Of a DNA stretch of 64,000 nt, positions 1 through 62,394 are shown in pieces. The notes under the pieces were generated by a model. That model saw nothing but the letters and a program-made list of their open reading frames with translations. It was not told the DNA's origin and made no database searches. Every line of letters begins with the position of its first letter. The first letter of the stretch is position 1. The DNA is taken from contig MU129013.1 in NCBI GenBank assembly GCA_014904985.1, positions 124,001 through 188,000 of the forward strand, given 5' to 3'. Source of the stretch: Hydnum rufescens UP504 (lineage: Eukaryota; Basidiomycota; Agaricomycetes; Cantharellales; Hydnaceae). The translations under genes and the position numbers were made by a program.

Positions 1-739
1 CAAATAATTTCCATAGACCTTCGAGCTGACAGCACCTAGCACGCGGTCCTCGGCCTGCATCAGCGCAGTCCCGTTAACTGTCTTGAGCCTCTTGTCTGTG
101 GTTCCCGCCGCGTCCGTTTCTTTGACGTCACCGTTTTCTTGCTTTTCTTGTTCCCCTTGACTTCCGAAAGCCGAGATAAATTGTGCGAAATCGCCTTACT
201 TGTCTTCCACTGCAGTTCCCGCATTTCGTAATTCCACCGATACCCACCAAACTTGCGGAGCCAACTAGGGCTAATCACCTGCGGCCAGTCGAGCATTGTA
301 CTCATCCGCAGCTCTAGATCTACGATCGAAGGACTCCAGGTGGGTCAGACGTAAGAGACCCGCTGCGCGTGAATCATCCAATTTCCAGAATCTGTGGTCT
401 CCAAAGGACGAGCGTACCGAGATTAAGCATTGGTAGGACCCAGGCATAAGTCAGGAGAGAGAAATTGGCTGTAGTATCTGGATAGTTGAAGCGTCATCGA
501 GCGTCCCCTGGGGAGGTGGGGGGTCTCATGGTGAAAGGGACGCGTAGATACCTGGGACTGGAAAGAGGAAGTGTTAGTGAGGAACGATATTAAATGATGC
601 GCGTACCAATGGCCTTGTCGTAAGTCAAGGGGTGCCTCGCCCCTTCGCGCCTCTTTGAGAGCATCCTATGGTGTTTCCGTCGGGGTATACGATATTTGCC
701 GATGATCTTTAGGAGTTTCTGGTGGGGGTATTGGCCATA
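1..739 (-). pseudogene. ABC transporter copy A, internally deleted remnant
   Basis: Remnant of a YOR1-type (ABCC) multidrug exporter, the leftmost of three same-strand copies. Bases 1 to about 190 match the linker after the first nucleotide-binding domain of copy C (16545-16738). From about 190 the sequence jumps to the region matching 19213-19800, the N-terminal part, so the first membrane domain and the first ATP-binding domain are missing. The start ATG would be at 737-739, by alignment with copies B and C. Many one-base differences break the frame. The gene continues off the left edge, so the second half cannot be judged. It cannot encode a working transporter as seen. Confidence 0.85.
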
Positions 740-3293
740 TCGATGGAGCAGAGGAAGTTTGCAAGCACAAATAATATTAATAACACAGACATGGACGAAT
801 GCATTACCCGGTGGCAGGAGAAGAAAACCAAGTGAAAACGGTTATTGTCAGAAAAGTGGCACGGTCGTCCTGACGGGGGGGGTCGTCGATTCGCTGAACT
901 GAAATCCTATCCTGGTGACCAGTATTTGAAGATAGGACGGAGCCTGACAGTTTCTTGGAAAAAAAAGATGAATATAGATCCATTACATACCATAATCCAT
1001 GTGCCATGGGTCTACAAACCTAGTTCCTGTCACACCTTGAACTAAGGCCACACTATTGGAAGTAGTCGGGAATGCGCTTGTTTAAGCGGTATTATGTAAT
1101 CAAGAACAAGATTGGTCCAATCGCAAACCAAGGCTTGATTCCAATACGGGGAGACCCAATTCCAAGAGAACAGAGAAGGGGAATTTGCGGGTCTCAATCC
1201 CAAAAGGGGAAATCCCTGGCAAAACAGTGAAAGAAAAAAGGGAAGCAGCAGGTGTTATGTAAGAATATCCCGGACCACAGGGAAACAAAAGGGGGGCAAA
1301 GACAGGGAATAAATGGTAATAACGGCAACCAGGGTGAACGGATTTCTCGATTCGATGGGGTTTTACGGATTACAGTTGCAGGCTCTGAAATGCACTGCTC
1401 ATTTCTGGCCTCGTCGGGGGAACATCAATTGATGGACTTGACGACATAAAATCACCACTGAAAGTTTTGAAGGAGAGAATCAGCTTTCTATGCCGCATAG
1501 GTGCACGGCAATCTTACTGTAGCTGTGCTGTTGGACAATGTTGGCCAATTAACCGGGTCGGCAACAGTGCATCCCAACTCTTTAAACCGGGTGTCCATGT
1601 GAAATATGTTTCATTAGTCGCTTAATTCCTAGTTTCGGGCTTAAACGCACGCCCGAAACGGGGCTTAGAGGAAGAGAGAGAAAATCTGGTTTATATACGG
1701 TAGGCAGAGGTTGCCGAGACCGGCCCCACCACCAGCCTGCTAAGCGAAAGCCCTGTTCCAAGGGTAAAGTGGTTGTCCAAAGGGTGTTGTTTCCAATGAA
1801 GAAAAGCAGGGCAGGACGGTTTGGTTGTGATGTTCAAATAGTGGCCTGCATTCAGCATCCAGTAAAGTTGCAAGTGAAGCAATGGCTTTGATAATAGAAG
1901 GGGTTGAAGAGATAGTGAGAAGTAAAGGGGGGGTGGGAGGCAAGGGTCAAGCCCACACCCACTGGCTTCCTACACCACGAACGGGTGCTAGAGTTGGTGG
2001 CGTTGAGTCGAAATCGGCAACTCCATCGGTGTTTTGCTTCCGGCTCGCAACGCCAGTAAGTGTTGCCTAATGCCCCCAGTGTATCGCGTAGAAGTTGATT
2101 TTTTTCAACGTCGGCAACTCTACAAGCTAGCCTGCCAAGACTCGTAAAGACGGAACAGAAGAAGCTGGCCCGTCCCTCTTCCCGATTGCCCATCCCGTCG
2201 GGACTGCAATCAGTGCCCTTACGCACTTCGGAAATCTCCAACACACGCAAGGCAAAAGACGGTTTCCGATAGAACGGAACAGAAATGGATCGCTGGGGTT
2301 GCCCCAAAGGTAGAAATAATGAATCAAAGGCATCGTGAACGAGAACATCGGCGAATGGCCGTGGCACTGCGAGTTAACGTGAAGTTTCCAAGAAGAACTA
2401 CGGACGCACAAAAAGCTCTGTCGACTCCGTAAAAAAGAACCTTCGCTTAGCTGCGTCCTTGCCGCCCATTCGGCAATCGCTCTTTGCATCGTCGACTTGC
2501 CATTCAGTCAGTCTGGTGCCATATACAAGGCAACTCCATCGCCTTGGGGGTCCAACCTATGCATGATCTCCAAGTATTTGAAAGACGAGTGCCTTCAGTC
2601 ATGAACAGTAGACAGAAGTTATAAGCCCACCAGATTTGGCCAGGAAGGAGAGAGACAACTATTAAAGGTGCGGGATTTGTTCACGGACCCAGTTGCAAGT
2701 CGAAACGTGCAATTGAGGGATAGATGGGGTGAAACGAACAAGAAAAAACAGCAGAATGCCTTGAGATTCTCCGCGAAAGTTTACGCAAATCGGTTTTCAT
2801 CCAAAGCAGAGGACATTCTGGAATTCACATTGATCGATACTAGTCGATGAAATGCTAGCTGGTGAAAAAGCCCAATTGGGGGATCAAGAACAGGCGTGTT
2901 ATTTATTGGAAATAATGGGGGTAACATATAGGAACGTATGATGGCAACGGGCACAGCCTTCGTCGATCAGTGAAGTTCGGAACTGGGGATTGAGGCTCCT
3001 CTGACAATTTTTGTTGAAGCTCAGCCATCATCCCAGAAACTATACCCCGCAAATCCGGGACATTGCAAACCATACGGTATTAGGGGCAAACCCCAAACTA
3101 CATCCAATGAAAACTAAGGTGCAGCCGGAATAGCAGATCATTAAGGAAAGAATGTTGTCCAGCTCCTGGATCCTGGGCGTCCTCATGCCATGAACGATGT
3201 ATTGGACGAATGCGGTTTTCCAAAAAAAAAAAGAACGAAAAAAGACGGGCAGCAGAATGTCCAAGGGGGACAATGGTTCTCGTTCATCTTCAT
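740..3293. other. Spacer between ABC copies A and B
   Basis: The part from about 755 to 1440 is a diverged duplicate of 6365-7010, the matching flank of copy B, so the duplicated unit included upstream DNA. From 1440 to 2990 I see only weak open frames, the longest on the minus strand at 1852-2367, with no recognised domain. The 2990-3290 part resembles the 3' flank of copy C (about 13100-13430). No gene is supported here. Confidence 0.6.
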
Positions 3294-6200
3294 GTATTTC
3301 GTTCTCTAATCCCTCAGTATGCCGTGAATCGCCCACGTGATGCCTGATCCGTCAACACATGCCTCCTGAAGATCGAATCAGTTCGACTAAAGGCGCTTGC
3401 GGAGTATCAACTCCGCTATCTGGCCTTTATCCATCAACAAATTTCGATCCTACCCATAATAGTCCTTCAGTGAAAACAAACCTAATTAGCTCAAAAAATG
3501 AAGAAAACTAGAAACCCACGGATAACTTAATTCGTGCCAATGCAAGAGAAGCCGTCCTTGTGCGAAAATTCGCTCGCGATCCGTGGTTTTGAATGTTTTT
3601 GGTCAGTTCATGAATCCACGGAGCTGGACAGGAGCGGCACACCGATATATCCATAAGCATACAACGCGCATACACAAAAGGTGGGTGTCGAAGGGGGAAC
3701 TCGGCGACGAACTTAACCCCGTTGGCCTCATTCCAGCAAAAGAACCAACCTGAACTGTCCTTTAAAAGAGCTCGTGCCAACTAACGAGCGAACGCTGACC
3801 AACGGAGAGGGTTTCCCCCCTTCATCCTCCAAACGGTTGAGTCCCCAATGTGAACCGGTGGCTGTAAGAACTTCCGATTGTGGAACGTATGAATGAAGGT
3901 GATGTAGGCGAAGAAGGCCCATCGATGTTTTCCTGTGTCTGCCCCGTCTCCTTTACGAAACGTCATCAACAGAGCTGTCGCTTTTAATGCATCCCCATAA
4001 TCGCGCATCGTCATAACCCAAATGGATCCGAGATTATACGAAGAAGTGTCAGAGAAAAGGTAGGTCCTGTGGTATAACTAAGGTGTGTATGGTTTTCACA
4101 AAACAACCGTGTCAGAGCTGTTAATGAAATCACCAACATCATCGTGTAGGCCCGTCAACAAGTTAGAAAACGCGAAGCCACACACCTGACCACGGGGAAT
4201 TTCCAAGTTTAGATTCTTCAGTTTGAATACTTGGCCCTCGTCCACGGTTTCCCTTTAACTGGCGAGGTTCTGTCACCCGGGGCACCCACCACTGCATGGA
4301 GTCTCTTCGCTTCTTTCCATTCTTCGCGTTTCTGCGCGCCCATTTTCCGTTCCTCCGAGAAACTGGAGACTTCGGGGGAGGGGCGCCATCCCATGTAAAA
4401 CTGGCATTGCGCAGACTGATGGCTACAGGAAGAGCGGGGTCGATCACGTGCGTTTCGCCAAGGAGCTCGGCGGTGAAGACGTCGGTGAGACGGTCAATTG
4501 CATTTGCCGCGTCCGCTATCGCACCCAGAGCGATGGCTGTATGCCACGAGATCAGTTTAAAGGGTCCTCATTGTTTGGCGGGGAAGACAAAGGAATTGAG
4601 AAAATACTACATACGTGAAAGCAGGAGGGGTAACCGGAGGAGCTGGAATAGGGCAAGAGAGGCGAAGATCACATCCGGCTTGAGGTTATGCTGCAGAAAA
4701 GGACAATTGATTGGGAGGTTGAGCTGTCCAAGACACGCGAGAGACCACACACCCCCGTAACAGAATACACTATGAAAGCGACGACAGCGCTTAAGATAGG
4801 CAACGAAAAGGCGAGCGAACTGTTCAAAGACCGGACGACCAGAAGCATGCGGATATACTGTAGCTCCTTCGTTCGATACTCACCAATCCGCTTGAGGAAG
4901 GGAATCTAGATGATCCAATATGGCACTCGAGGGCTGGCTAGGCAAAGAAAGGAAAAGAGAGTCGGACGTACTTCCCAAGCGAAGAATTTTATGATACGCA
5001 TTCCACCCAGTAATTCTTGAAGAAGCTTGGCTCGTTTATCCGTCCATACCATGCTCTTCTGCCGAAGCTTCCTGAGTTGACCCATGACCTTGGCCATTGC
5101 TGGCGTTATGAGGATGAACACGGCAAATCCCGCTGAAGCTGATACACCCAAATTGAGGAGCAATAGGATGAGGCACACTATCATCTGGATAGGCGCTGTC
5201 CAAGCGAAATGAAAGAAGCCGCAACAGAAGTCAATGCGAGAAACATCTGTAGTATTTAAGTTCATGGCATAAGTTATGAAATGCAAGTGGCAGTGCAAAG
5301 ATTCTCACCGGTAGAAATATGGTTCACTATCTTCCCATCTGGAAGCAGTGATCGTGCTCGAGCCGTGAATCGGAGAGAGCGTCTATATATCGCAGTGATG
5401 AGACCAGCACGAAGAAGAACACCAGCTCCGAGAGAACGGTGGAAAGCATGCTGAAGGCCCTGAGAGGCGATGATCTGCAATAAGAATAGGGCAATTGCTA
5501 GACCGACACCTCTTCCAACGGAAGGGGTTGGTGCTGTGGGATGTAACTTTCGAATTTCGTAACATTCACTAACGTATTTAATGATCGCCTACCTATGGTG
5601 TAAGGGTCAAGCAAGCGGGGGGACGGTAGTATTAGGAGGCACCTTTATGACCAAAGGACTGGCGATCTGTGCCATGTCGGCGATGATTTTGAGGAGGCCT
5701 GATCCACTGGAGGGTCGGGCAGGTTGTCGGAACAAAAAAAACAAGCACTTACCGCCAGACCAGAAAGACCACTTTACCGCATCATTCATCGCAAACGCCA
5801 GGCTAGGTTTCTTCTTCCCGTCTTGCTGTCTCCACTGACGTTCTCGCGTTTCGTAATTTCCACCGATACCCCACCAAACCTTGCGGAGCCAACTAGGGCT
5901 AATGTCACCTGCCGGCCAGTCGAGCATTGTACTCATCCGCAGCTTTAGATCTACGGTCGAAGGACTCCAGGATGCGGTCAGCGTAGAGACCCGCTGCGCG
6001 TGAATCATCCAATTTCCAGAGATCTGTGGTCTCCAAAGGACGAGCGTACCCGAGATTAAGTATTGGTAGGATCCAGGCATAAGTCAGGAGAGAGAAAAAT
6101 TAGCTGTAGTATCTGGGATAATTGAAGCGTCATCGAGGGTCCCCTGGGGAGGTGGGGGGTTCTTCATGGTGAAGGGGACGCGTAGATACCTGGTGGACTG

Positions 6201-6348
6201 GAAATGAGGAATGCTGGTGAGGAACGACATTAAATGAATGCGCGTACCATGGTGCGTTGTCGTAAGCCAAGGGGGGTGCTTGCTCCTTCGCGTCAGGGTA
6301 CGACAGTTGCGACGATCTTGTAGGAGTTCTGGGGAGGCTGCTGGCCAT
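3294..6348 (-). pseudogene. ABC transporter copy B, half-gene fusion pseudogene
   Basis: Second YOR1-like copy. It starts with ATG at 6346-6348 and keeps the N-terminus, the first membrane domain (4906-5298, same helix pattern and [17 protein letters not shown] loop as copy C) and the stretch before the first ATPase domain (4163-4447). At about 4115-4130 it jumps straight into the second ATPase domain. The part matching copy C 14235-17482 (first ATPase domain, second membrane domain, second Walker A) is gone. The breakpoints share the four bases CAGA. The remaining second ATPase part (3508-4014) has several frameshifts, and the stop codon of copy C is not conserved. It is a clear pseudogene. 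Confidence 0.88.
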
Positions 6349-7107: not shown

Positions 7108-7112
7108 ATGCT
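7108..7112. repeat. Target-site duplication ATGCT, left side
   Basis: The five bases ATGCT directly precede the left LTR and recur exactly at 12111-12115 after the right LTR. A perfect 5 bp duplication is standard for copia integrase and indicates a recent, unrearranged insertion. Confidence 0.9.
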
Positions 7113-7506
7113 TAGTGAGAGTTATGGTATTCGCATGAGAACAACTCCCCCTGATTACTAAGCGGGTGAGGATGAATTCGGTGGATCGGCGAGACTCGAG
7201 TTGCCCAGATGAATTAAGCAGGTGGTGGGAAGAACACACACAGAGAAGTCCTTGAGATTTATGGGGCTCAAGCCCGTCCTTTATACTATTTACATGAGGC
7301 ACAGAAACACATAAGATGGGGTAAAATATGGGGTAAGAATGAAGTAAAAAAAAAAGTCCAATGATGGCGGCAAGGAAAAGATCGCCGGTGAAACCTATCT
7401 ACAAGATCCTAGATAATCGAGGTCGGTGCTGTTTGCATAGCCCCCTAGGGGTCGCGCTTGTCTCCGACGTTGTATCCGGTCGCTTCCGTATCCGGTTGCT
7501 CCAACA
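7113..7506 (-). repeat. 3' LTR of the copia element (394 bp)
   Basis: In element orientation it begins TGTTGGAG and ends CTCACTA, so the ends are TG...TA rather than the usual TG...CA. The duplication flanks and the primer-binding site both place the boundary there. Compared with the 5' LTR it has a 16 bp insertion that creates a near-duplicate of a 14 bp motif, three more A in a homopolymer, two one-base indels and eight substitutions, all at CpG sites. Confidence 0.93.
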
Positions 7507-7515
7507 CTCCCCCTC
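7507..7515 (-). promoter_or_regulatory. Polypurine tract of the copia element
   Basis: Reads GAGGGGGAG on the minus strand, directly before the 3' LTR start TGTTGG. It is the plus-strand DNA primer site. The TGA stop of pol overlaps it, which is typical of compact copia elements. Confidence 0.88.
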
Positions 7516-10507
7516 AAGCGCGATATAACCCAAGTCCAGTTGTGTGATAGTCCAGTTTCGCAGCCCCGAGGGCTTTCGTTAAAATGTCGGCCGTCATAGT
7601 CTCTGTGGGACAATATACCAGGTTGAAAATACCGTCTTTAATTGTCTTGCAGATAAAATGAAAATGGATGTCGATATGCTTCGTCTGGGCGTGATAATTA
7701 TCGCCCATCGCGAGTTTCAATGCAGCTTGATTGTCACAGTACAGGGTTGTGGCCTTGAGTTGAGTGTGAAACAACTTGGAAATGAGGCTCCACAGCCAGA
7801 TGCCTTCTTTGGCAGCCTGCATCGCAGCGACATATTCTGCCTCGGCTGTTGATAGTGTAATTAGCTCCTGTTTTCGGGAGCTCCAGGAGACCGTTCCTCC
7901 GTCAATCAGGTAAGCATACCCTGTAATCGTGCGGTGATGTTCCTGTGTCGCTCCGTCTGCATCCGTATACCCGAGTAAGTCGTGACTTTTCAATCCGTAC
8001 GTTAGGCTGATATCTTTCGTGCCTGATAGGTACCATATAGCTCGCTTTGCCGTTTCCCAATGCGTAGGTCCCGGCTGGTCAAGAAATCGCGATAGTGTCA
8101 ATACCGCAAAGGTAATGTCTGGCCTCGTGGCCACAGACGTGTACATGAGGCTTCCTATGGCCTCGCAATATGGGGTCTTCTTCATCCATTCAATTTCTTC
8201 AGGATTCATCATGGGATCCTCTTTTGTGAGTGTGGCCCCGGGTTCCATTGGCATATTTATGAATTTTGAGTTGCCCAAAGAGAACCGGGCTACAATTGAA
8301 TCAATGTACGACTTTTGCGATAATTGGATTGTTCGTAATTCATGGTCCCGTTCGATTTTAATGCCGAGTAGCCAATGAAGTGGCCCTAAGTCGGTAATCG
8401 GGTATTTGTCATTAATCTTCCGCTTGTATTCATCAAGTAATGCCCTCAACGGGCCCGTAAATGTGCAATCGTCCACATGGATTGTGAGAATGAGCTCCTC
8501 CCCATTCACTTGGGTATGGAACACACCCGGATCGGTGTGGCTAGCCCTGAAACCGAGATCATTAAGGGCGCGCGAGAGGGAATCATACCAGCATCGCCTG
8601 GCCTGTTTGAGACCATATAGGGTCTTCCGTAGTCGTAGAATCGTGTCTTTTTTCTGGGGTTTATACTCAGGGGGGAAATGCATATAGATTTCTTTGTTTT
8701 TGTCAAGTTCACCATTGAGGTATGTGCCATTGAAATCGAAAGAGTCGATATCCCAATCATTTCGTGCAGCGAGTGCAATAATCGTTCGAAAACTTGCAAG
8801 TTGCGTGATGGGGGAATACATTTTGTAGTAGTCAACTCCAAAGATTTGAGTAAAACCACGGGCAACTAGACGTGCCTTGTATTTTAGAATGGTGCCATCG
8901 GCTTTCTGTTTGATTTTGAAGACGAGTTTACAATCGACAATGTTTTTGTCAGGTGGTCTTGGGACTTCTTCCCAAGTTCCAGCGTCTTCGACGGTCTTGA
9001 GCTCGATATCTATAGCTTGTTTCCATTGTGGCCAATCTGTTCGTGACTTGGCCTCTTCCAGAGATTTCGGATCACCGTCAATATCTTGAATCGTCGCAAA
9101 AGCTGCATCGTTAAATTCTATATGATAGATGGCATCATTTACAAGAGATGCTGAATTCTTGCTGATATTATCACCGCTCCCCCTGACGCTGGGGATCTGA
9201 GAGTCAGATTTGTGTGTGTATCCATGAACTGTCCCTTCGCCCTGTGCGAGGCGTTGCACATATTGAGACGGTTTGGGGACATGTGTGGAGCGTCGTTCAG
9301 GTTCAGCAGGTGTGGTCTGTTTTGGCATAGGAGGGGGTTTGGCGGGGGTAGATGGCCTAGAATTTAGGGTTTTGTCGTCGTCTGAGTCTTCAGGATCTGG
9401 AGAGTTGTTGTTGGTCGGCAGGGGATTTATCCGCGGCCTTGAGCTCGTAACTGGGGGATCGACAGAAATGTCAATTGTCGAGGTAGTGAATTTTATGTTA
9501 CGTTCAACAGAAATTTTGTTCCTTCCCTTCCAGTAAACCCTATGAGCATGTGGGCTATCGTTATCATAGCCCACCCAGAAGGCCTCATTCGTGCGTTCAT
9601 TGAGTTTTGATCCGGAGTCGTTATGAACCCAGACTCGTTGGCCCCAAATAGGGATATTCGCAAGGTTCGGCTTTTCCTTCATAAGCCATTCGAGTGGCAT
9701 CATGTGGCCTAAGACACGCGTAGAGGTACGGTTTTTGAGCCAGATGGCCCAATTCACAGCCTCGCCCCAGAGATTTTTCAACAATTGGGATTGATGTAAC
9801 ATAGCGCGAGTTCGTTCGAGAATCCGCCGATTCAGTGATTCGGCAACTCCGTTGTGCTGGGGAGTATCATGGGTGGTTAATCGGCGCTCTGTGCCCTGAT
9901 CCCCTAGAAACTTCATGAATGCATGACTTGTGTATTCGCCTCCGCGGTCAGATCGAAGCCGTTTAATTTGGACTCCGTGCTGCGTCTTTGCCCAAGCTGT
10001 GAAATATTTGTAGGCATTGAGTGCCTCATCCTTCGTACGTAATAGTCGAAGTTTTGTATATCTCGTGGCGTCATCTGTAAATGTGATGTAATATGAGCGC
10101 CCGCCTAAGGAATTTAGGGGTGATGGCCCCCAAACGTCTGTATGAATTTCCTCGCTGAATGAGGAGGCAAGCGGGGCTGTCCACTCTTTCTTGATGGCCT
10201 TCCATGTGGCCTTGGCATACTCGCAGGAGTCGCAGGAAAAATCCTTGATGTCATCAATTAGGTCGATGCCCTCGATAACGTTGTTTTTGATAAGCATGCA
10301 TATTGTATTGACAGAAATATGGGCCAATTGTCTGTGAAGATCTGAGAGCTTCACCATCTCGTGTGCAATTGTAGCTGCCGAATTAGCGTGTTCGACTTTG
10401 TATAAGCCATTATTGCCACCAGAGATGCATCCAATAAGGACACCTTTTGGGTTTTTGATTTTGCACAAGTTTCCGTCGAATAGGACTTTGTGACCCGCTT
10501 TTGTAAT
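7514..10507 (-). CDS. Copia pol: integrase, reverse transcriptase, RNase H
   Basis: One open frame of nearly 1000 codons follows the TGA at the protease/integrase border. In order: an integrase zinc-binding HHCC region (HRQLAH ... CDSCEYAK), the integrase core with HTDVWGP, SDRGGEY and the acidic HNGVAESLNRR motif, a low-complexity linker, a reverse transcriptase with YGLKQARR and the catalytic HVDD box, and RNase H with YTDADGA, STAEAEY, YCDNQAA and the TKHIDI tail. All catalytic acids I can check are present. Domain order and motifs place it in Ty1/copia (Pseudoviridae-type) elements. The product would be cut by the element protease. Confidence 0.95.
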   Translation of the reverse strand: MTKAGHKVLFDGNLCKIKNPKGVLIGCISGGNNGLYKVEHANSAATIAHEMVKLSDLHRQLAHISVNTICMLIKNNVIEGIDLIDDIKDFSCDSCEYAKATWKAIKKEWTAPLASSFSEEIHTDVWGPSPLNSLGGRSYYITFTDDATRYTKLRLLRTKDEALNAYKYFTAWAKTQHGVQIKRLRSDRGGEYTSHAFMKFLGDQGTERRLTTHDTPQHNGVAESLNRRILERTRAMLHQSQLLKNLWGEAVNWAIWLKNRTSTRVLGHMMPLEWLMKEKPNLANIPIWGQRVWVHNDSGSKLNERTNEAFWVGYDNDSPHAHRVYWKGRNKISVERNIKFTTSTIDISVDPPVTSSRPRINPLPTNNNSPDPEDSDDDKTLNSRPSTPAKPPPMPKQTTPAEPERRSTHVPKPSQYVQRLAQGEGTVHGYTHKSDSQIPSVRGSGDNISKNSASLVNDAIYHIEFNDAAFATIQDIDGDPKSLEEAKSRTDWPQWKQAIDIELKTVEDAGTWEEVPRPPDKNIVDCKLVFKIKQKADGTILKYKARLVARGFTQIFGVDYYKMYSPITQLASFRTIIALAARNDWDIDSFDFNGTYLNGELDKNKEIYMHFPPEYKPQKKDTILRLRKTLYGLKQARRCWYDSLSRALNDLGFRASHTDPGVFHTQVNGEELILTIHVDDCTFTGPLRALLDEYKRKINDKYPITDLGPLHWLLGIKIERDHELRTIQLSQKSYIDSIVARFSLGNSKFINMPMEPGATLTKEDPMMNPEEIEWMKKTPYCEAIGSLMYTSVATRPDITFAVLTLSRFLDQPGPTHWETAKRAIWYLSGTKDISLTYGLKSHDLLGYTDADGATQEHHRTITGYAYLIDGGTVSWSSRKQELITLSTAEAEYVAAMQAAKEGIWLWSLISKLFHTQLKATTLYCDNQAALKLAMGDNYHAQTKHIDIHFHFICKTIKDGIFNLVYCPTETMTADILTKALGAAKLDYHTTGLGLYRA

Positions 10508-11660
10508 TCAGTTTATCGAAATGACTGTTAATCCGAGTTCTGGAGCATGGAGGGCATCGCGCAAGATGACTGGGGTGAATTTCCTGTCATTCAGCACTTG
10601 AATCTTTAAGTCGCCGGCACCAATAGCATAAAATATACGTTTGTCGGCAGCAGTAATTGGGCGAGGGTCGATGGAATGGTAATTAATGAATTGCTCCTTA
10701 TACGGAGACATGTGTCGGGTGGCCCCTGAATCGTATATTTTGGCATAAGCAGGGGATTTCGTCTGTTCGTTCATTGTTGCCACGATATCTGGCTGTGGCC
10801 CGACGGCCTCAATTGTTGCCCATGCCTCAATGTCGGCATGTGCAGCTGCTGAGGTGCTTTCCTTAGTACCCGTCCTAGAGTTCGGCAATCCGTGGGGTCC
10901 CTGGCCTTCCTTTCCTCCCCCTTTCGCCCAACAGTCCACTTTGAAGTGTCCCTTTCGGTGGCAATTGAAGCACTCAACATCCTTCTTGCTCTTCCTTTGC
11001 CCATTGGCATGGAAAGCCTCGTTGTTATTCGATTTGGACTTCCCTTCTTCAGGGTTCGCCAGTCATACTCGTCTGTCACGAGGCGGATTACTAGAGTCGG
11101 CGTAATAGACTTGCCACTGAGATCCACGGCGGCCATAATCGAATTTATCGTATTATCATATGAGTCGGGGAGTGATCCCAATAGAATGTTTCCGTATTCT
11201 TCGTCCAGAATAGTGGCGCCCATGGCTGCCAACTGCTCTTTAAGATTGGACAATTTGTCGAAGTGCGCATGGACATCGTCATCTGCGCTGCAGCGAGTAT
11301 TCTGTAATCGCTTTCGTAAGTCGACCAAAATTAACTTCGACCGTCCTTCATATAAAGCCTGGAGCTGATCCCAGACCTCCTTGGCTTTTAGTCCAGCCTT
11401 AATCTGGCTGAACACTGTATCGGGGACCGAGCCGGCCACAAGTTGCTTAACCATGGCCTCATCCTTCTTCCATCGAGCCTCCGGCATAATTCCATCAACC
11501 GTACCGGCAGCTGCTATAGTCTGACGTAATCGACGTCACTCATAAGGTGCTCAAGGAGCCCTTTCGCATCGAGGGCCCACATAATCCGGTCGCGGTATGT
11601 GACCCAGTTCATACCGTCTGCTGCCAATTTCGTAACCCGAATCTTGAATTTGTCGCTCAT
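10508..11660 (-). pseudogene. Copia gag and protease, frame-broken
   Basis: The start ATG is at 11658-11660 and opens with MSDKFKIR followed by a gag segment of the UBN2/copia type (WVTYRDRIMWALDAKG). The frame breaks near 11510-11520 (one base lost) and resumes at the MPEARW stretch. It breaks again near 11050, before the zinc knuckle ECFNCHRKGHFKVDC, whose C-X2-C-X4-H-X4-C spacing is intact. The protease carries the catalytic DSGA in YDSGATRHMS. An in-frame TGA lies at the protease/integrase border (about 10508-10512), where related elements usually read through with arginine; CGA to TGA is a CpG change. Both shifts are single bases. Confidence 0.85.
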
Positions 11661-11722
11661 AGTGATCTTTTCTAGTGATGGAAAAAATAGGGGGTAAATG
11701 TGTTTCTTTAAGAGAGCAGCGA

Positions 11723-11735
11723 TGGGCCCATAACC
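11723..11735 (-). promoter_or_regulatory. Primer-binding site, half-tRNA type (initiator Met)
   Basis: On the minus strand GGTTATGGGCCCA follows the 5' LTR without a gap. This is complementary to the anticodon arm of initiator methionine tRNA (GGGCCCATAACC with CAT anticodon), not to its 3' CCA end. Drosophila copia primes with the same internal tRNA region, so the element probably uses a cleaved half tRNA as primer. Confidence 0.85.
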
Positions 11736-12110
11736 TAGTGAGAGTTATGGTATTCACACGAGAACAACTCCCCCTGATTACTAAGCAGGTGAGGATGAAT
11801 TCGGTGATCGGCAAGACTCGAGTTGCCCAGATGAATTAAGCAGGTGGCGGGAAGAACACACACAGAGAAGTCCTTGAGATTTATGTGGGCTCAAGCCTGT
11901 CCTTTATACTATTTACATGAGGCACAGAAACACATAAGATGGGGTAAAATATGGGGTAAGAATGAAGTAAAAAAAGTCCAATGATGGCGGCAAGGAAAAG
12001 ATCGCCAGTGAAACCTATCTACAAGATCCTAGATAATCGAGGTCGGTGCTGTTTGCATAGCCCCCTAGGGGTCGCGCTTGTCTCCGACGTCGTATCCGGT
12101 CGCTCCAACA
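11736..12110 (-). repeat. 5' LTR of the copia element (375 bp)
   Basis: Partner of the 7113-7506 LTR with the same termini. It ends on the plus strand with CTCCAACA at 12110 and is followed by the second ATGCT target copy. It lacks the 16 bp insertion of the other LTR. Confidence 0.94.
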
Positions 12111-12115
12111 ATGCT
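12111..12115. repeat. Target-site duplication ATGCT, right side
   Basis: Matches 7108-7112 exactly. It restores the uninterrupted spacer sequence when the element is removed. Confidence 0.9.
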
Positions 12116-13428
12116 GTGCAATAATTAACTACCAAATCCTGCTGCTGCCGCGCCAGTACGAGTGCGTGACAGCAATTACACTCCACATAGAGCGGGAAAT
12201 GGAGAAACTGCGTCATTTGATGTGTAGTGTGCAATTTTGCTTTTAGAGTTTTAAAATATGTAGAATTACTGTCTGGGCATGGGTGAAAACCAGATTATTG
12301 GAGGAGTTTTGAAAATGTAAAACCAACGTCGCACGTTGCATACGTCCAAAATCACTGTTCCTAATAAGAAAATTCATCCATTTCGGAGTGTAAGCGCTAT
12401 CCTTGCGAGGGTTCCTGTGCTTCGTTTGCTCCAGCAGTGAAATCAACTCTTGACATCTTCTTGATTTCACTGCCTCTGATTTACTGCATATTCAAACGAA
12501 AAGTCATATATAAATTGATTTCTTCATCCTCCTAACAAATTTGGCATGCAGAGACAAATCACCAGAAACAGCATGCTTGCATGTGACAGACATAGAAAAC
12601 ACCTCGCACGGTAAGGATTAGAACCGGATGAGTTTTTTAGGAAGGTTGCAAGCGGGAGAGGGGGTGTACAATGAGCAAGTTCAACTGGGCCACGGGGATT
12701 TGGGTACAATTGGCATGACGTTATTCGGTCCTCCGGTGTGCAGGGGTTGGCCGATAGGAAGAAAGGGGGTGAAGACGTAACTAAGAAGTAAGGGAGGTTC
12801 GAAGCCGTGCTTCATACACGTGGGTCCCAACCTCGGGCGTTGGGTCCCCCAATTCCTGTTCCCATCCCCACGCTGTCCATCCTAATCCCTGAATACCGAG
12901 GATACGCCCACTATCCACTGAAGCGGCTCGAAGATTTGGAATGCAATAGCCGAACTGGTCACCTCTCCACAGCTGATTCCGGTGATAATCTTCTGCATGA
13001 AAAGGGATGCTGAGATCACTGCGCAATGGCTGGAATCTCGTGACCCCCAATCCTTGCGAAACCCAAGATTTCCAGGGTATTTTTAGAGAAATCTGCCCTG
13101 CCAGAAAATTAACGACGAATGCGCGGATCCTGGGACGTCTCATCAACTCATTCATATAGATTCCTCGCCACTTTGTGGAACCCCCACCAATCAACATAAA
13201 TCTTTTACAGTATTGGAGCCACGACCCTAAACTACATCTACATGAAGACTACAGACTAAAAAGGCGTAGCACTACAGGTAATACAGACCAATTAAGAGTA
13301 TGTGTCCAGCTCCAAGGGCGTCTCATGCCATGACATGTATGGGGCGAATGCGGTTCCCAGAAAAAAAGAAAAAAAGAATGGCCAGCAGAAGAGGTGCAAG
13401 GGAGGGGGGCATGGTTCGTCGTTCATCT
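12116..13428. other. Spacer between copia and ABC copy C
   Basis: No gene seen. The part near 13110-13428 resembles 3050-3330 behind copy B, including a purine-rich run and a shared stretch around GCGAATGCGGTT, so the duplicated unit included the 3' flank of the ABC gene. The rest has no recognisable content. Confidence 0.55.
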
Positions 13429-16400
13429 TCATTTACGTCGTTCTCTATCCTTCAATGCCGCTTGAATATCACTGAACGTGATACCTGATCGGTCGCACAT
13501 GCTCCTGAAGATCGAATCATTTCGAGTAAAGAGCGCTTGCGGGGTGTCCAACTCCGCTATCTGGCCTTTATCCATCACACAAATTCGATCGTACCCAATA
13601 ATAGTCCTTAGGTAGAAACAAAGGCTAATTAGCTTCAAGAATAGAACAAAACTAGGAGAACTCCACGAAACTTTATTCGATGCGCAATGCAGAGCAGTGT
13701 CTTGTGCGAAAATTCGCTCGCAATCGTGTTTTGAATGTTTTGGTCGGTCTCATAATCCACCGAAGCTGCATAAAAGCGACACATGATATCCATAAGTGCA
13801 CCACGCACATAAACAAAAGGCAGGGATCGAAGGGGGAACTCGATGACGACTTACCCGTGGCCTCATCCAGCAAGACCACCTGACTATCCTTAACAAGAGC
13901 TCGTGCCAAACTAACGAGCGAACGCTGACCGACGGATAGGTTTCCCCCTTCATCCTCAACAGGTGAGTCCAATGTGAACCGGTGGCCATAATGAATTCCC
14001 GATTGTGGAGCGTATGATGAAGGTGATGTAGGCGAAGAAGGACCGTCAATTATTTCCTGCTTCTGCTCGTCTTTACCAACGTCGTCAACCAGAGCCGATC
14101 GCTTCAGTGCATCCCATAATCGTGCATCGTCATAAATCCCAAATGGATCGAGATTACTACGAAGAGTTCCAGAGAATAAGGTAGGGTCCTGTGGTATAAC
14201 TAGGGTGTGGTTTTCGCAAACAATCGCGTCAGAAGCACAATCAAGAGGCCGAATAGACTCTAAATGCTCACTTGCGATCTTGCTCCTCAGATCCGTCAAT
14301 CCTAGTGTGGATACATCGATCCCGTCCAACGTGATAGACCCAGAGTTGAGCTCCACCAATCGGTATAAAGCCACCAGGATACTAACGCAAAAAGAGAGGT
14401 TGTGAGAATTCTAGTAGCACATGCACGGGCCGATCTTGGGCGCACGCACCTTGACTTCCCAGCCCCAGTCCTACGATCAAAGATCGCACATATCAGTATA
14501 TGATCTGACCCTCTGAAAGTCACCGCGCTTACCGCCCCACGATACCGATATGTTCACCTTCGCTAACATGCAAAGAAAGCCCCTTCAATACAAGGGGTAA
14601 CCCGGGTCGGTAACTCCTAAAAAGGGTCAAAACACTCTCGTGATTAAAATCGCCTCATAAGAAATAGGGATGATAAATGGAAATAGAACGCGTACAGGCT
14701 TATATCATTGAGTTCGAGATCCCCGCGGCTTGGCCAGTGAGGAGGTGGCTTCTTGTCATCAACGCGATGAGGAGCTTCCTGTTCGAGGTTGTGGGAGTAA
14801 TGATGGACTCGCTCGACCGCACTGCGCAAACAGCGTAAATCACAGAGCATGAATAAGGAAAATCAGCAACCGAGCGAAAGTGGTCACCGCGCACTTCATA
14901 TCATTCTCGACTTCGGCTACCTGCCTGATCATCCAACCGAAACTCTATCCGGAGGTGTCGTCAGCGACGCAGACTCCAAGGAAACAAACCAACAATCACG
15001 AACCTGTTGCACTGATAAGATATAGGAAAGGGCCACACCCGTTTGAGAAGGAGAAATCGAAAATGGGGAGGCAACAGCCAGAATTGCTACGGCGAATGAG
15101 AGTATCGCCCCTAGAAAATCGAGATGCACGCCGAGCCAGCGTTGGTTCGTGATCGTCAACCAATAAGCACTATTATGATCGCGTATCCCAATGAGTCCGA
15201 CAGCGGTCATTAAAAAAGAGCCAAAATATACCGATTCTCGTGGTCCATGTATTGCTCATTTTCTCGAGTGAACCGAGTGGTTTCACCGTAGGCTCGAATA
15301 GTGCCTAGACCAGATAACGATTCTGAAAAGTGGGAATACAGCGAGGACCGCAAAATTGCATCCAAGCGCTGGATTTCAAAATGAACGAGTCAACCCTGGG
15401 ACAAGAATTAAAGACGCCCAAGGAGGAACACACCTTGAGCTCTCGTGCACTGCTTCGATAAAACACACCGATATTGAAGTATAGCAGGATCACGATGCCG
15501 ACCGGAATTAGGAACCTTGAAAGAAACAGAAATCAGCCACAAACATTTCGACAGTTTGTAACGTAGTATTACCAAGGGAGGAGAATAGAAATGAGGATGA
15601 CCGCCCCGATTATCTGCGACAAGGTTGTTGTCATCATTCGAAGAGCCTCGCCAAGCGTGTCTGAAAGAAGGGGCCACACAATCGGAACGAATCATCAAGG
15701 CATATTAGTGAGGGGAAACATACTGTCAAGAGTATCCACATCTATCGAATTATAATCAGTACCGGGAAAAAGAAGTTTTTTTAGACGAGCCGCATGCATC
15801 GCACCTTTGGAAAAGCGATTCATGATGCGACCTAGAGGCTACAGGTATGAAGAAAAAAGGTAAACATGCAAAATCATGAAGTAGAAATAATCTCACAGTC
15901 GTCCTGGACAAGAAATTACACGTCAGCGAGATGTAATGGATTCGATCTGACAAGGGAGATCTGCTTCACTCGAAGAAGGACATGGGAGCATGGATCACGC
16001 GTTGTATGGAATCCTGAACATTTGGCGTCGGTGCTTGATGCTTATTATCTAGTACAAAACTTGAACTGACCTTGTGCATCTTTACACTAGCAAAGAAAGT
16101 CATGACAGCAAAAGCGGAGCCTAGCAAAAACAGGCTGAGGGCCTGTCCGATCCCGAGACCTACAAACGACTGCAGTTGAGGATCTATCGTCTATAGACAG
16201 GCAGTAGCCATTACCAGCGTAAACACCATGTAAAACCCTGTGATAGAGGCCATTTTCTAGGGATGGACAGCGTCAATTCCATCACCTATAATCAGGTCCT
16301 CAATGCCTACCTCTCTTGCCAATATACCAACCTGATTCATTTCAAAGTGTGAAAATTAAATAGGTCGTTGCTGGCGGAATGTCCATTACTCACCAATAAG

Positions 16401-19400
16401 AGCCCATCACCTGCAAAGCTTGTACCAACACGACCACTACAAGTAGGATCGGGCCCAGGATATGACCATGGGCAGCACTACACAGGGATTCATACGTGAA
16501 GTAACGGGAATATTCCCGCAAAAAGACAAAACTGCCCACCTCAGATAGTTTCCATAGACCTTCGAGCTGACAGCACCCAGCGCGCGTTCTTCGGCCTGCA
16601 TCAGTGCAGTCCCGGTAACTGACTTACGCTTCTTGTCTGTGGCCCCCACCGCGTCCGTTTCTGTAACGTTCTCGTCTTCGTGCTTTTCTTGTTCCCCTTG
16701 ACTTCCGAAAGCTGAGATGAATTGTGCGAAATCGCCATTATTCTTGACAAGCTCCTCATATGTTCCCCGCTCAACGATACGCCCGTCAAGCATGGTGATG
16801 ATATAATCGGTTTGTGGCACTGAATATATGCGCATTAATGCGCTTCAGAGAACGTACGCGTCTGAGCGGTATAAAAGAACAGCGCTTACGGAAATGAAGC
16901 GCATGCGTCACTAAAACCCGGGTCTTCCCAGCCAACGCACCCTGCACAGCGTGCTCAAAGACATGTTTCCCAACATGAGCATCCAGCGCACTGAACGGGT
17001 CGTCCAAGCACACAATGTCCGAGGCAAAATACAGCGCCCGTGCAACGTTGATTCGCTGCTTCTGACCTCCTGATAAACTGATTCCCTTCTCCCCTACGAT
17101 CGTTTGGTCCCGTGAGGGAGCATGTCTAAATCGGCATTGAGCGAGGCATCGTAAATCACTTTCCAGTATTTTTCTTCGTCGAATTCACGTCCAAAAAGGA
17201 TATTATCTCGGACCGAACAGCTCTAGGGGAGAGTCCAGTGGATGAGGGTGCATGATATGTAAGGTCAATCCGGTCTCACCTGTATCCACGCAGACTGTGC
17301 GGCATATGAAACAGAACCACCAAATATTACTTCTCCCTCGGTACGTCGCATCTCTCCAAGAATTCCCTTGATTTCCCAGAACAAAGAAATATTCGGGACG
17401 GCGTTCTCTGGATCAGGGGACAACGACGAGACACACCTGGAGTAGGGAGCTTTTCCCTGAACCAACGGGCCGACTATGGCGCAGAGCTGTTATTGAAATC
17501 ATCAACATCATCGCATAGGCCCGTCAACAAGTCAGAATACGTGGAGAAGCCACACACCTGACCGCGGGGAATTTCCAAGTTTAGATTCTTCAGTTTAAAT
17601 ACTTGGCCCTCGTCCTCGGCTTTGTCTTTAACTTGCGGGGTTCTGTCACCCGAAGCACCCACTACTGCATGGAGTCTCTTCGCTTCTTTCCTTTCTTCGC
17701 GTTTCTGCGCACCTGTCTTCTTCTTTTCCCCGAGGAACCGGTGGCTTCCGGAGGAGGTGCATCCCACGTAAAACTTGCATTGCGCAGACTGATGGCTACA
17801 GGAAGAGCGGGGTCGATTGGGCGCGTTTCGTCAAGGAGCTCGGCGGTGAAGACGTCAGTGAGACGGCCAACTGCATTTGCCGCATCGGCTATTGAACCCA
17901 GAGCGAGAGCTGTATACCGCGATTTCAGTACGAAAAGATCAGTTCAAAGGGTCCCCATTGTTTGCTGGGGAAGGAAAAGAAATGAGGACATATTACATAC
18001 GTAAAAGCAGGAGTGGCAACCGGAGGAGCTGGAATAGGGAAAGAGAGGCGAAGATCACATCCGGCCTTAGGCTGTGCTATAAAAAAGATACTTAATTGGG
18101 ATGTTGAGCTGTCCAAGGCACACGAGGGACTACACACCCCCATAACAGAATACACTATGAAAGCGACCACAGCACTTAGGACGGGCAACGAAAAGGCGAT
18201 CGCATTGGTCAAAGCCCGGACGACCAGAAGCATGCGGATATACTGTAGCTCCTTTGTTCGATACTCACCAATCCGCTTAAGGAAGGGAATCTAGATCATC
18301 CAATATGGCGCTGTTGAGCTGGCCAGGTAAAGGAAGGAAAAGAGAGTCGGACGTACTTCCCAAGCGAAGAATTTTATCACACGCATTCCACCCAGTAATT
18401 CTTGAAGAAGCTTGGCACGTTTATCCGTCCATACCATACTCTTCTCCCGAAGCCTCATGAACTGGCCCATGGCTTTCGCCAATGCCGGCGTTATGACGAT
18501 GAACAGGGCAAATCCTGCAAGAGCTGATACGCCCAAATTGAGGAGCAATAGGATGAGGCATACTACCATTTGGATAGGCGCTGTCCAAGCGAAATGAAAG
18601 AAGCCACAACAGAAGTCAATGCGAGAAACGTCTATTCCAGTTCATGCGCGGACGAGTCATGATATGCAGGTGGCAGTGCAAGTGAAAGATTCCCACCTGT
18701 AGAAATATGGTTCACTATCTTCCCATTTGGAAGCAGTGATCGCGCTCGAGCCGTGAACCGGAGAGAGCGCCTGTATATCGCGGTGATGAGGCCAGCACGA
18801 AGAAGAACACCAGTTCCGAGAGAACGATGGAATGCATGCTGAAGGCACTGAAGAGGCAATGATCTGCATTAAGAATAGGGTAATTGCTAGGCCGACGCCT
18901 CTTCCGACGGAAGGGGTTGGTGCTGTGGGGTGTAGCTTGCGAATCTCGTAAAATTCAGTGACGTATTTAATGATCGCCTACCCAAGGTGCAAGGGTCAAG
19001 CAAGCAGGGGGACTGCGGCGCTAGGGGACGTACCTTTATGACCAAGGGCGTGGTGATCTGTGCCATATCAGAAATGATTTTGAGGAGGCCTGATCCACTA
19101 GACGGTCAGCTAGGTTGTACGGAATAACAAAAATCGAGCACCTACCGCCAGACCAGAAAAACCACTTTACCGCATCATTCATTGCAAAAGCCAGGCTAGG
19201 TTTCTTCTTCCCGTCTTGCTGTCTCCACTGACGTTCCCGCGCTTCGTAATTTCCACCGATACCCCACCAAATCTTACGGGGCCAACTAGGACTAATGTCA
19301 CCTGCGGCCAGTCGGGCATTGTACTCATCCGCAGCTTAGATCTACGATCGAAGGACTCCAGGATGCGGTCAGCGTAGAGACCCGCTGCGCGTGAATCATC

Positions 19401-19782
19401 CAATTTCCAGAGATCTGTGGTCTCCAAAGGACGAGCGTACCCGAGGTTAAGCATTGGGAGGACCCAAGCATAAGTTAGGAGAGAGAAAAAATTGGCTGTA
19501 GTATCTGGGATAATTGAAGCTTCATCGAGGGTCCCCTGGGGAGGTGGGGGGTTCTTCATGGTGAAGGGGACGCGTAGATACCTGGTGGACTGGAAATGAG
19601 GAATGCTGGTGAGGAACGACATTGAACGGATACGTGTACCATGGCGCCTTGTCGTAAGCCAAGGGAAGTTGTTGCTCCTTCGCGGCGCCTTCTTCCGCCC
19701 CTTTAAGATCGTCCTCGGGCTTGCCGTCAGGGTACGATATCTGCGACGATTTTGAAGGAGTTCCGGAGAGGGTACCGGCCAT
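13429..19782 (-). CDS. YOR1-type ABC transporter, copy C (nearly complete, apparent frameshifts)
   Basis: ABCC-type plasma-membrane exporter of drugs or oxyanions, two membrane domains each followed by an ATPase domain. The start ATG at 19782 is favoured because a 47 bp intron (GTATCT...CCCCAG) then joins FPVHQ to [16 protein letters not shown]. First membrane domain about 18291-18569; first ATPase domain 16786-17640 with [17 protein letters not shown] Walker B; second membrane domain about 14640-16300; second ATPase domain 13429-14570 with GRTGAGKSS split by two introns and signature [16 protein letters not shown]. Stop at 13429. Three one-base losses break it: near 19336 (copy B keeps AAA), at 17467-17469 inside the first Walker A, and at 17109-17111 before the first LSGGQ. 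All are homopolymer contractions, so it is either a fresh pseudogene or intact with read errors. Confidence 0.85.
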
Positions 19783-20520
19783 ATCGACGGAGTAGAGTCA
19801 GCTTTCAAGGAATAATATTAATATATAAGACATATCCTTAAGCGGCGGCAGCAATGCAAGTGAAATCGGCATTAATAGTGTCAGTGGAGTAGCACAGCCG
19901 TCTTAGTCACGTGAACATCGGCGCCGGATCCTAATCCTACCGCCGGTGGGTGGCAATGCTGCATAAACCTACGCGAGCAACAGGGCCTTCACACTGCTTG
20001 CAAATAGGACTCGGTCACAGGTGTACGACATGATAATGGTCTGAGTACGTGTCATAGTCTAATAAACCTGTCCTGTACTTTGAAGCTAAGGTCAACACTG
20101 TTCGGATCCACAGACAGTTCTTCTCAACAGCCCTTACTGAGCAGGGTTCTGAACTCTCAATATCTCTCCATCAACATTTCCTTTGAGTGTATAACTACTA
20201 AAGCCACACTGCCTGTTCCCTTTAATGGTATTGATGCGCTACAAAAACAGCACGTTCCTATCATGTGGTGTAATTTATGACATATTCAATCTTCTGACTA
20301 GGAGGATTTTCTGAGGTCGTCTCGCCGTTCCCAACCAGTAGAGCAAGAAGCATGTATCTAACCCTGATTCTGAGGACAACGAGACTCAGAAGCAAGTGGG
20401 CAGGAGCAGATTCACGAGATAACGGTATGTCAGAAAATAACAGAGGAGGCTGGAAGGAGTAACAGCGATAACGCACCTAGCACGTGACACCATTATTCAT
20501 TTAAGTTGACTTCCCGTGTA
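19783..20520. other. Upstream region of ABC copy C
   Basis: Intergenic, between the divergent ABC copy C and PRI1. The first 150 bases are related to the upstream flanks of copies A and B (AATAATATTAATAT block). No gene is supported. A small inverted-repeat element occupies the right part. Confidence 0.5.
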
Positions 20521-60485: not shown

Positions 60486-62394
60486 TCACATCAATAAAGT
60501 TGATGAATACTGTCCATCTCTCCAAGGAAATTGACCCCCATAGGCTTCCACGTCCCAGCGCTTCTCCAACTCCCGACATCGTGCCTGGGTGGCTGCATAA
60601 TCCTCTGGATTTGTCTGAAGCTCTTGCTCGACACTTTGTCGTGCTGCTAGGTACCGTTGAAGAATCTCGTGATCACGCATGTATTCTTGAAGCGTGTGGT
60701 CGGCGAGCTCGATGGGGCAACGGGTCCCTGGGTACAGGTCTGGCCATAAGATTTGCAGAGCGACGAGGGTCTGTCGCACCATAACAAGGGAATGGGCCCA
60801 AGAACGGCCAGCGGCATCCAGTAACGTACTAACGTATTCAACTTGGGGCCGAAGGGAGATCTCTTGTCGCAGAGGATACCGCTTGCTGATGAGCAGCTTG
60901 TAGTACTTATGCATATCCGCCCGTGCCTTATCCCACTTCACAACAAGTTTTTCGTCTTCTGGCAGCGATTCGTATCCATCTGGAAGAGGTACGGGACGTG
61001 GACCAGAAGTAAGGGAAACGACCCCTTCACTATATACCAGGGCATGAGGAACCTCGGACAGCAGGGTCGCAGGACCAGCCCAGGCATGTTGCCAGTCAAT
61101 AAGCCCGGTGACATTCATTGGCGACGGTGAGGCCTGAACCATGATATTGGATAGAGAGAGATCGGGGTGCCATAGTATTGGACAGTGCAATGAATCATCC
61201 GGAATAAGGTGAGGATCCTGGAAGGCACGAATGGCATGGTCGAGCCATTCGATGTGAACAGCTGGTGAGTGGGACGTGCAGAACGGGTCCCGATAAGCTC
61301 GGGGTTTAGCATGAGCACGGATCCATTGCTGTTCACATCTAGCGACTGCGACCGCATAACTCGCGGCCGTCTTCCCTGTTTCAAGGGTCAGGAATGACCT
61401 CCCCAAAATCACTGGTTCACGTACAAGGCCCACGATCAATGTCGAGATCCCCACGTTCTCCACGCCAAAATACTGGCTGTACACTAGGGCCAATTCGGAA
61501 CCGATCCTCCCCTTCCCTGGTTTCCGAGTCATCTGAGTAGAGTTTCTCGTTTTGGAGATCGGGACTGACATCGTGTTTGTAATAGAGACTTCCAAAGGAG
61601 GCAAAGCGAGCTTTAAAAAAACGATCCTCAAGGAAGAGAATGTCCCGGACCATTGGGACCATCTCGCGGGCGTCAGGGTGAGTAAACCATCGGTCGGCTA
61701 GCGAGACACCCGGCATCTTCTCCATGACAATAAATGCCGATCCCACAGGGGTGCTGTTGGCTTTCGAAGCCCACGACAACACACGAGGAGCGGGGATTTT
61801 GAGCACAGTACGGATAAAGTCCATCGTGGCAACTTCGCTTGCGGTAACCAAATGTATGGGGTCAATAATACGAAAAGGTATCCGGACCACAGCCTCAGAG
61901 TCGTTGTCGAATGTAAGCAAGAAAGCTTTATTGTAGGTGCCTGCAGCGACGTCGGAAAATTTGACATTTGAATGCAAGCCTTGGTTCACATCTGGATAAG
62001 TGCGCACCTTCGCCAAGTTTAGTGAAGCTTGTACATGATTGGGCTCCAACCGCCTTACATGCGATAGTCTTCATAGCTTCCACGTTGAACCTGACATAAC
62101 GCGTCGCAAGTTCTAAGTGGCAGAGCACATGTGGGAGCTTGGCATTACTGGCCCATCGGAAGTAAATGGATACGAACGTTCTTTCTCGTTAAATAACCAG
62201 CGTCCAGAAGTATAACGGAAATATGATTCGTGGTCCTCTGCAAGGCCTAAGTAATATCTGCAGTAAGTAACACTACCTAGACGTGTATAAACGGCAAGCA
62301 TGCCATGGCCACCGAAATGTGAGATGCGGGCAGACAGTCCTGGGGGTGCAAGAGCACGCCAGCGAGTGAGAGTGGCACGATAGCAAGAGCGCAT
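60486..62394 (-). CDS. AIM9-like mitochondrial phosphotransferase (APH fold)
   Basis: Start MRSCYRATLTRWRALAPPG (62394) is a basic, acid-free mitochondrial presequence. Then YFRYTSGRWLFNEKE, an exon RYVRFNVEAMKTIACKAVG, the glycine-loop region KLGEGTYNKAFLLTFDN, VVRIPF, VATMDFIRTVLKIPAPRVL, and the catalytic HPDLSLSNIMV (HxD....N) with the metal-binding VTGLIDWQHAW. The tail extends to TLLM at 60486. Four or more introns with GT/AG ends restore one frame, e.g. 61380-61425 between DIDRGPW and KTAASYA. The family (aminoglycoside/choline-kinase-like) is strongly expanded in basidiomycetes; the substrate is unknown. I find no frame breaks. Confidence 0.88.

What the first reader, a model, noticed from the sequence alone, without database searches (positions are those of the whole stretch)
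7113..12110. All LTR-LTR substitutions are CpG transitions
Aligning the 394 and 375 bp LTRs by eye, I find eight substitutions, and every one is CG against TG or CA. Five CpGs are kept in the left and three in the right LTR. The base before the mutated C is G, A, C or T with no bias, which argues against the TCG-type RIP reported in some rusts and smuts. A ninth CpG change separates the two halves of a small duplication in the left LTR. The other differences are indels. So the element is very young, and its mutations so far come almost entirely from CpG decay, as expected of methylated cytosine deamination. Usual LTR-divergence dating would overestimate its age.
Basis: seen in the sequence. 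Interest (0 to 1): 0.75.

Follow-up and report, generated by a model that had tools for sequence, protein, structure and literature searches.

The report
Fungal retrotransposon decaying at CpG sites
A young copia-type jumping gene in a mushroom-class fungus differs between its two ends by base changes only at CpG sites, the expected scar of DNA methylation on transposons, and its relatives show the same pattern while duplicated genes beside it do not.

Summary
Software alignment of the LTRs (7113-7506, 11736-12110; 5-bp TSD ATGCT) gives exactly eight substitutions before the tail repeat, each CG against TG or CA, five CpGs kept left and three right. Family copies show CG as the old state. One detail is backwards: the tandem unit at the LTR end is the family norm (40 of 43 rows); the right LTR lost a unit.

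It is not special to this element. Nine LTR pairs carry 139 CpG decays and 10 non-CpG substitutions, about 200-fold per base (bootstrap 131-472). Eight of 11 further subfamily pairs that aligned well give about 125-fold. Gene duplicates in the window give 1-2 fold. Decays show no same-strand clustering and no NCG preference; decay per LTR runs from 3% to near saturation. This fits gradual, methylation-linked decay better than homology-triggered RIP bursts.

The genome encodes exons matching DNMT1 with RFD, DNMT5, an SRA protein and a TDG/Mug glycosylase. Methylation was not measured. CpG-biased transposon decay is already reported in basidiomycetes, so this is a new member of a known kind; the size of the ratio is the interesting part.

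The parts
7108..7112 (.). target site duplication ATGCT, left
7113..7506 (-). left LTR, the 3' LTR of an element that runs on the minus strand; 394 bp
7472..7502 (.). two tandem units (16 and 15 bp) at the LTR end, kept in the left LTR and in 40 of 43 aligned rows; one unit is missing in the right LTR
7507..7515 (-). polypurine tract GAGGGGGAG beside the 3' LTR (read by eye)
7514..10507 (-). pol open frame, 997 aa: GAG-pre-integrase, integrase core, SH3-like, RVT_2 reverse transcriptase
10508..10510 (-). in-frame TGA between two pieces of one frame
10508..11062 (-). open frame upstream of the TGA with a Pol beta-barrel (protease) domain
10771..11535 (-). gag open frame, copia-type Retrotran_gag_2
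11723..11735 (-). primer-binding site GGTTATGGGCCCA beside the 5' LTR (read by eye; likeness to the copia half-tRNA primer site is recalled)
11736..12110 (-). right LTR, the 5' LTR of the element; 375 bp
12111..12115 (.). target site duplication ATGCT, right
4113..6292 (.). control: ABC-transporter-like duplicate, partner at 17482-19684, 88% identical, no CpG excess
60602..61165 (.). control: duplicate of an APH-like gene (Pfam match just under its cut-off), partner at 63466-64000, no CpG excess

Best explanation
A young Ty1/copia-type LTR retrotransposon, inserted with identical LTRs, sits in a fungal genome where CpGs of this element family lose their C to T far faster than anything else changes. 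Most likely steps: TE chromatin is marked; CpGs are kept methylated by DNMT1-RFD and DNMT5; 5-methylcytosine deaminates to T on either strand; the T:G mismatch escapes repair; each CpG then ends as TG or CA and stops there. Shown: the CpG specificity, direction, both-strand symmetry, spread over the family, its absence from gene duplicates, and the presence of matching exons for the enzymes. Inferred: that the CpGs are methylated and that deamination is the chemical step.
For: Eight of eight substitutions are CpG to TpG/CpA. 139 CpG decays against 10 non-CpG in nine LTR pairs; hazard ratio per base about 202, bootstrap 131-472. Eight further pairs about 125. In 41 aligned LTR rows the 27 CpG dyads read CG 595, TG 242, CA 234, TA 1: once one C is lost the dyad stops decaying, as expected of a symmetric CpG mark. 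TG and CA are equal (71 of 139 TG). NCG context flat in pair events: ACG 12/78, CCG 17/122, GCG 27/184, TCG 33/204, P 0.95. Gene duplicates of the same window: ratio 1.9, 1.8, 1.0, pooled 1.5; a fourth duplicated stretch 1.1. DNMT1-type catalytic exons with RFD on C75, DNMT5-like exons on C50, SRA exons on C21.
Against: No methylation data. The ratio is far above the roughly tenfold usual for methylated CpG in mammals (recalled, not from a call). A TDG/Mug-like glycosylase exon is present, so missing T:G repair is not an obvious reason. Adjacent decays alternate strand slightly more than shuffles (54 same of 121, lower-tail P 0.027), unexplained. Across the whole family (not only pair events) NCG contexts differ (ACG 0.32 to GCG 0.16, P 8e-7), though those counts share ancestry. 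The other repeats tested give lower ratios: 17 and 62, with one short pair without any non-CpG change.
Confidence: 0.8

Rival explanations
1. An enzyme-driven CpG mutator aimed at transposons: methylation or its writers provoke C to T change at CpG actively, as Dim2 does at CpA in Zymoseptoria during mitosis, rather than slow passive deamination.
For: Ratio near 200 in nine pairs. A Dim2-dependent mitotic mutator is described in passages of PMC8016269.
Against: No enzyme was found that is specific to it. A passive process can also reach a high ratio in an organism with very few replication errors per year (inference). Decay is graded from 3% to near saturation, with no burst visible.
Confidence: 0.25
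2. Classical homology-triggered RIP with a CpG preference.
For: C to T change in repeats; a RIP-like label is used for CpG bias in other basidiomycetes (passages of PMC4014442, PMC6980582).
Against: A 2.2-kb, 88% identical direct duplicate 13 kb apart in the same window has no CpG excess. No runs of one strand. CpA is not touched: TA appears in 1 of 1084 dyad cells. Only two PF00145 places were found and neither was tested as a RID.
Confidence: 0.07
3. The LTRs were never identical: template switching or gene conversion with other family members brought in CpG variants that pre-existed.
For: At 7263/7264 the left LTR lacks a T as do C522, both C103 LTRs and both C317 LTRs, while the right LTR has it.
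Against: Both LTRs share the clade marker A at alignment column 122 with C522 and C103_R only, and a CG at columns 100/101 found in no other row. No non-CpG substitution separates them, though copies differ at many such columns. TSD intact.
Confidence: 0.05
4. Base-calling artefact at methylated CpG in a long-read assembly.
For: The assembly has at least one indel-ridden duplicate stretch (L009:433-820), so it carries read errors.
Against: The same k-mer reads CG in one LTR and CA or TG in the other, and subfamilies share fixed TG or CA states, which errors tied to a sequence context would not give.
Confidence: 0.03

Closest known systems
CpG-signature transposon decay in basidiomycetes with a Masc2-type DNMT1 (PMC4352252, passages seen)
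   Same: C to T at CpG only, in transposons, in a genome with DNMT1-RFD and without a detected RID
   Different: There the signature was found in 10-40% of TE copies of Microbotryum, Puccinia and Melampsora by comparison with consensus or GC-richest copies; here it is measured within LTR pairs, with non-CpG change as clock and gene duplicates as control
CpG hypermutation in Tricholoma matsutake (PMC6980582, passages seen)
   Same: Agaricomycete, CpG bias, DNMT1-type genes, no rid/dim2
   Different: There labelled RIP with mechanism left open; here homology-triggered RIP is disfavoured
CpG-biased SNPs in Rhizoctonia solani AG8 (PMC4014442, passages seen)
   Same: CpG to TpG bias in an Agaricomycete
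   Different: There genes and repeats were hit alike and CpG was about 40% of C to T changes; here gene duplicates are spared and about 93% of substitution events are CpG
Dim2-dependent mitotic RIP-like mutator of Zymoseptoria tritici (PMC8016269, passages seen)
   Same: mutator tied to a DNA methyltransferase and to repeats
   Different: CpA target, ascomycete

Membership tests
Ty1/copia LTR retrotransposon | LTRs flanked by a 5-bp target site duplication | tested here: met
   ATGCT both sides
Ty1/copia LTR retrotransposon | integrase before reverse transcriptase, copia-type gag and RVT_2 | tested here: met
   Pfam PF14223, PF22936, PF13976, PF00665, PF25597, PF07727 in that order
Ty1/copia LTR retrotransposon | primer-binding site and polypurine tract beside the LTRs | tested here: met
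   read by eye; tRNA match not computed
RIP (Neurospora type) | C to T with CpA preference | tested here: not met
   CpG only; TA in 1 of 1084 dyad cells
RIP (Neurospora type) | any long enough duplication is hit | tested here: not met
   gene duplicates 4113-6292/17482-19684 and two others: ratio 1.0-1.9; whether they were duplicated while such a process was active cannot be told
RIP (Neurospora type) | RID/Masc1 methyltransferase | tested here: inconclusive
   PF00145 found two places, one DNMT1-like and one DNMT5-like; no RID-specific search was run
5mC deamination decay | CpG to TpG/CpA, both strands, dyad stops after one hit | tested here: met
5mC deamination decay | target CpGs are methylated | not testable with these tools
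   no methylation data
TCG-type hypermutation of Microbotryum | T before the mutated CpG | tested here: not met
   TCG 33 of 204, other contexts 0.14-0.15, P 0.95

The most novel reading that the evidence does not exclude
An active, transposon-aimed CpG mutator in an Agaricomycete-like fungus: a process tied to DNMT1-RFD or DNMT5 that turns transposon CpGs to TpG/CpA about 200 times faster than other bases change, without needing homology, without strand runs, and sparing duplicated genes.
Probability: 0.22. Interest if true: 0.75.

Novelty: new member of a known kind. Interest (0 to 1): 0.42.

Why it matters
LTR-based dating in this genome is inflated about 15-fold if CpGs are kept in, so transposition bursts would be placed far too early. 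LTR pairs against neighbouring gene duplicates give a cheap test of whether a fungus mutates transposon CpGs by chromatin targeting or by homology. The ratio near 200 asks whether passive deamination is enough, which mutation-accumulation lines could settle.

Tried and rejected
Rejected: RIP-like strand runs. The focal LTRs look strand-biased (left TTT, right AAATA), but over 18 LTR lineages 54 of 121 neighbouring decays share a strand against 63.2 in shuffles, and over-dispersion between lineages is P 0.14.

Rejected: private decays in the internal region as a strand test: only 12 private events over 11 copies, too few.

Rejected as counted differences: mismatches at the edge of the 16-bp indel. 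Rows dropped: C180_L (left part is not LTR) and C126_0 (indel-ridden duplicate) from the dyad table; these and C150 from the per-copy and family context table; 3 of 11 subfamily pairs (C272, C201, C180) because the alignment had 250 columns or fewer. Copies are a lower bound: 40 of 192 candidates were scored. Of the nine pairs, C91, C103 and C461 have no matching TSD (C103_L and C461_L are truncated); the six with TSD give the same ratio, 200. Two of the eight subfamily pairs (C37, C309) are near saturation, so the 125 is rough.

Led nowhere: naming the host. The best named relatives of its Hsp110-like protein are Agaricomycetes at 59-65%; order left open. Horns et al. 2012 is not held, so I know it only through citations.

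Full report
What was claimed and what is there. The window lies in an unnamed 63.19-Mb genome of 539 contigs. At 7113-12110 sits a copia-type LTR retrotransposon on the minus strand: copia gag, protease-like, integrase and RVT_2 domains, TSD ATGCT on both sides. A MAFFT alignment of the two LTRs gives eight substitutions before the tail repeat, each CG against TG or CA, and 0 of 325 non-CpG columns changed. The chance of eight of eight falling on CpG bases is about 3e-8.

Direction. I aligned 43 LTR rows from the same genome. Using 41 rows, 27 CpG dyads carry CG in at least four rows; summed, they read CG 595, TG 242, CA 234, TA 1, other 12. At each of the eight focal sites CG is a common family state, so the changes are CpG losses, five in the right and three in the left LTR. 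Four further dyads are decayed alike in both LTRs, so the source copy was already decaying before it jumped.

The duplication. The tandem unit at the LTR end is present in 40 of 43 rows. The right LTR, solo LTR C92 (TSD CAACC) and the truncated C150 lack it.

How general. In nine LTR pairs, six of them with matching TSDs, I counted 139 decay events at 172 CpG dyads against 10 non-CpG substitutions in 2964 columns. With a simple correction for double hits this is 0.34 per CpG base against 0.0017 per other base, a ratio of 202 (bootstrap over pairs 131-472); the six TSD pairs alone give 200. Eight of 11 pairs from more distant subfamilies give about 125, with 25 non-CpG changes in 2723 columns; C139 has ten changes, all CpG, and C18, the youngest, has one CpG change and one transversion.

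Where it does not happen. Three gene-like duplicates in the same window, among them ABC-transporter parts, have 427 non-CpG changes in 3201 columns and ratios of 1.9, 1.8 and 1.0, pooled 1.5; a fourth duplicated stretch gives 1.1. The window's CpG observed/expected is 0.94. Three other repeats on held loci, not identified, lean to CpG more weakly: 17, 62, and one short pair without any non-CpG change. So the process follows repeat chromatin of some kind and not duplication as such. The controls are older than the LTR pairs and partly coding, which weakens the contrast but can hardly account for a hundredfold.

How it acts. TG and CA are equally common (71 of 139 TG), neighbours on one LTR do not share a strand more than by chance (54 of 121, expected 63.2; the lower tail is P 0.027, a slight excess of alternation I cannot explain), and NCG contexts are flat in pair events (P 0.95). 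Over the whole family ACG looks higher and GCG lower, but those counts share ancestry. Decay per LTR runs from 0.03 to the upper bound of the estimate between pairs, and the non-CpG counts go with it as a clock would predict (chi-square 5.9 over nine pairs, only ten events). This speaks for many single events over time.

Machinery. Exons of a DNMT1-type enzyme and an RFD lie about 3 kb apart on C75. An exon on C50 matches the solved chain 7r76, labelled Rad8, E 7e-43, which I recall as Cryptococcus DNMT5, next to a PF00145 exon. SRA exons lie on C21 and a Mug/TDG-like exon on C45, with one stop in the scanned frame that may be an intron. No search specific to RID or MBD4 was run.

What is known. 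Passages of PMC4352252 tie CpG-only signatures in basidiomycete transposons to Masc2-type DNMT1; PMC6980582 reports CpG hypermutation in an Agaricomycete; PMC4014442 reports it in Rhizoctonia, genes included; PMC9674265 measures high CpG methylation in repeats of Marasmius oreades; PMC13297926 reviews DNMT1-RFD and DNMT5 as the basidiomycete pair. Two searches for LTR dating corrected for CpG in fungi listed no paper whose title or abstract start showed it; I read none of those papers.

Verdict. New here are the size of the ratio, the spared gene duplicates and the absence of strand runs.

Noticed in passing
L009:433-820 (C126:11832-12219): Repeats the C126:16249-16638 LTR with the same CpG states and the same right flank but many one-base indels: probable assembly or raw-read artefact.
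   Followed up: partly
window 7263/7264 and 11887: The left LTR lacks a T as do C522, C103 and C317; the right LTR has it like the rest. Reversal, conversion or read error; unexplained.
   Followed up: partly
window 7346-7355: A run of 10 (left) and 7 (right) where most other copies have 4 or 5.
   Followed up: no
LTR alignment columns 100/101 (focal GATCGGC): Only the two focal LTRs keep CG; 22 rows have TG and 16 CA.
   Followed up: partly
window 11723-11735: Primer-binding site resembles the anticodon-region (half-tRNA) site of Drosophila copia; the likeness is recalled.
   Followed up: no
L040 and L047 (C461, C283): The same truncated LTR with the same flank on two contigs: duplicate or allele.
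   Followed up: no
window 1-6300 and 13280-19823: Cluster of ABC-transporter-like duplicates around the element.
   Followed up: partly
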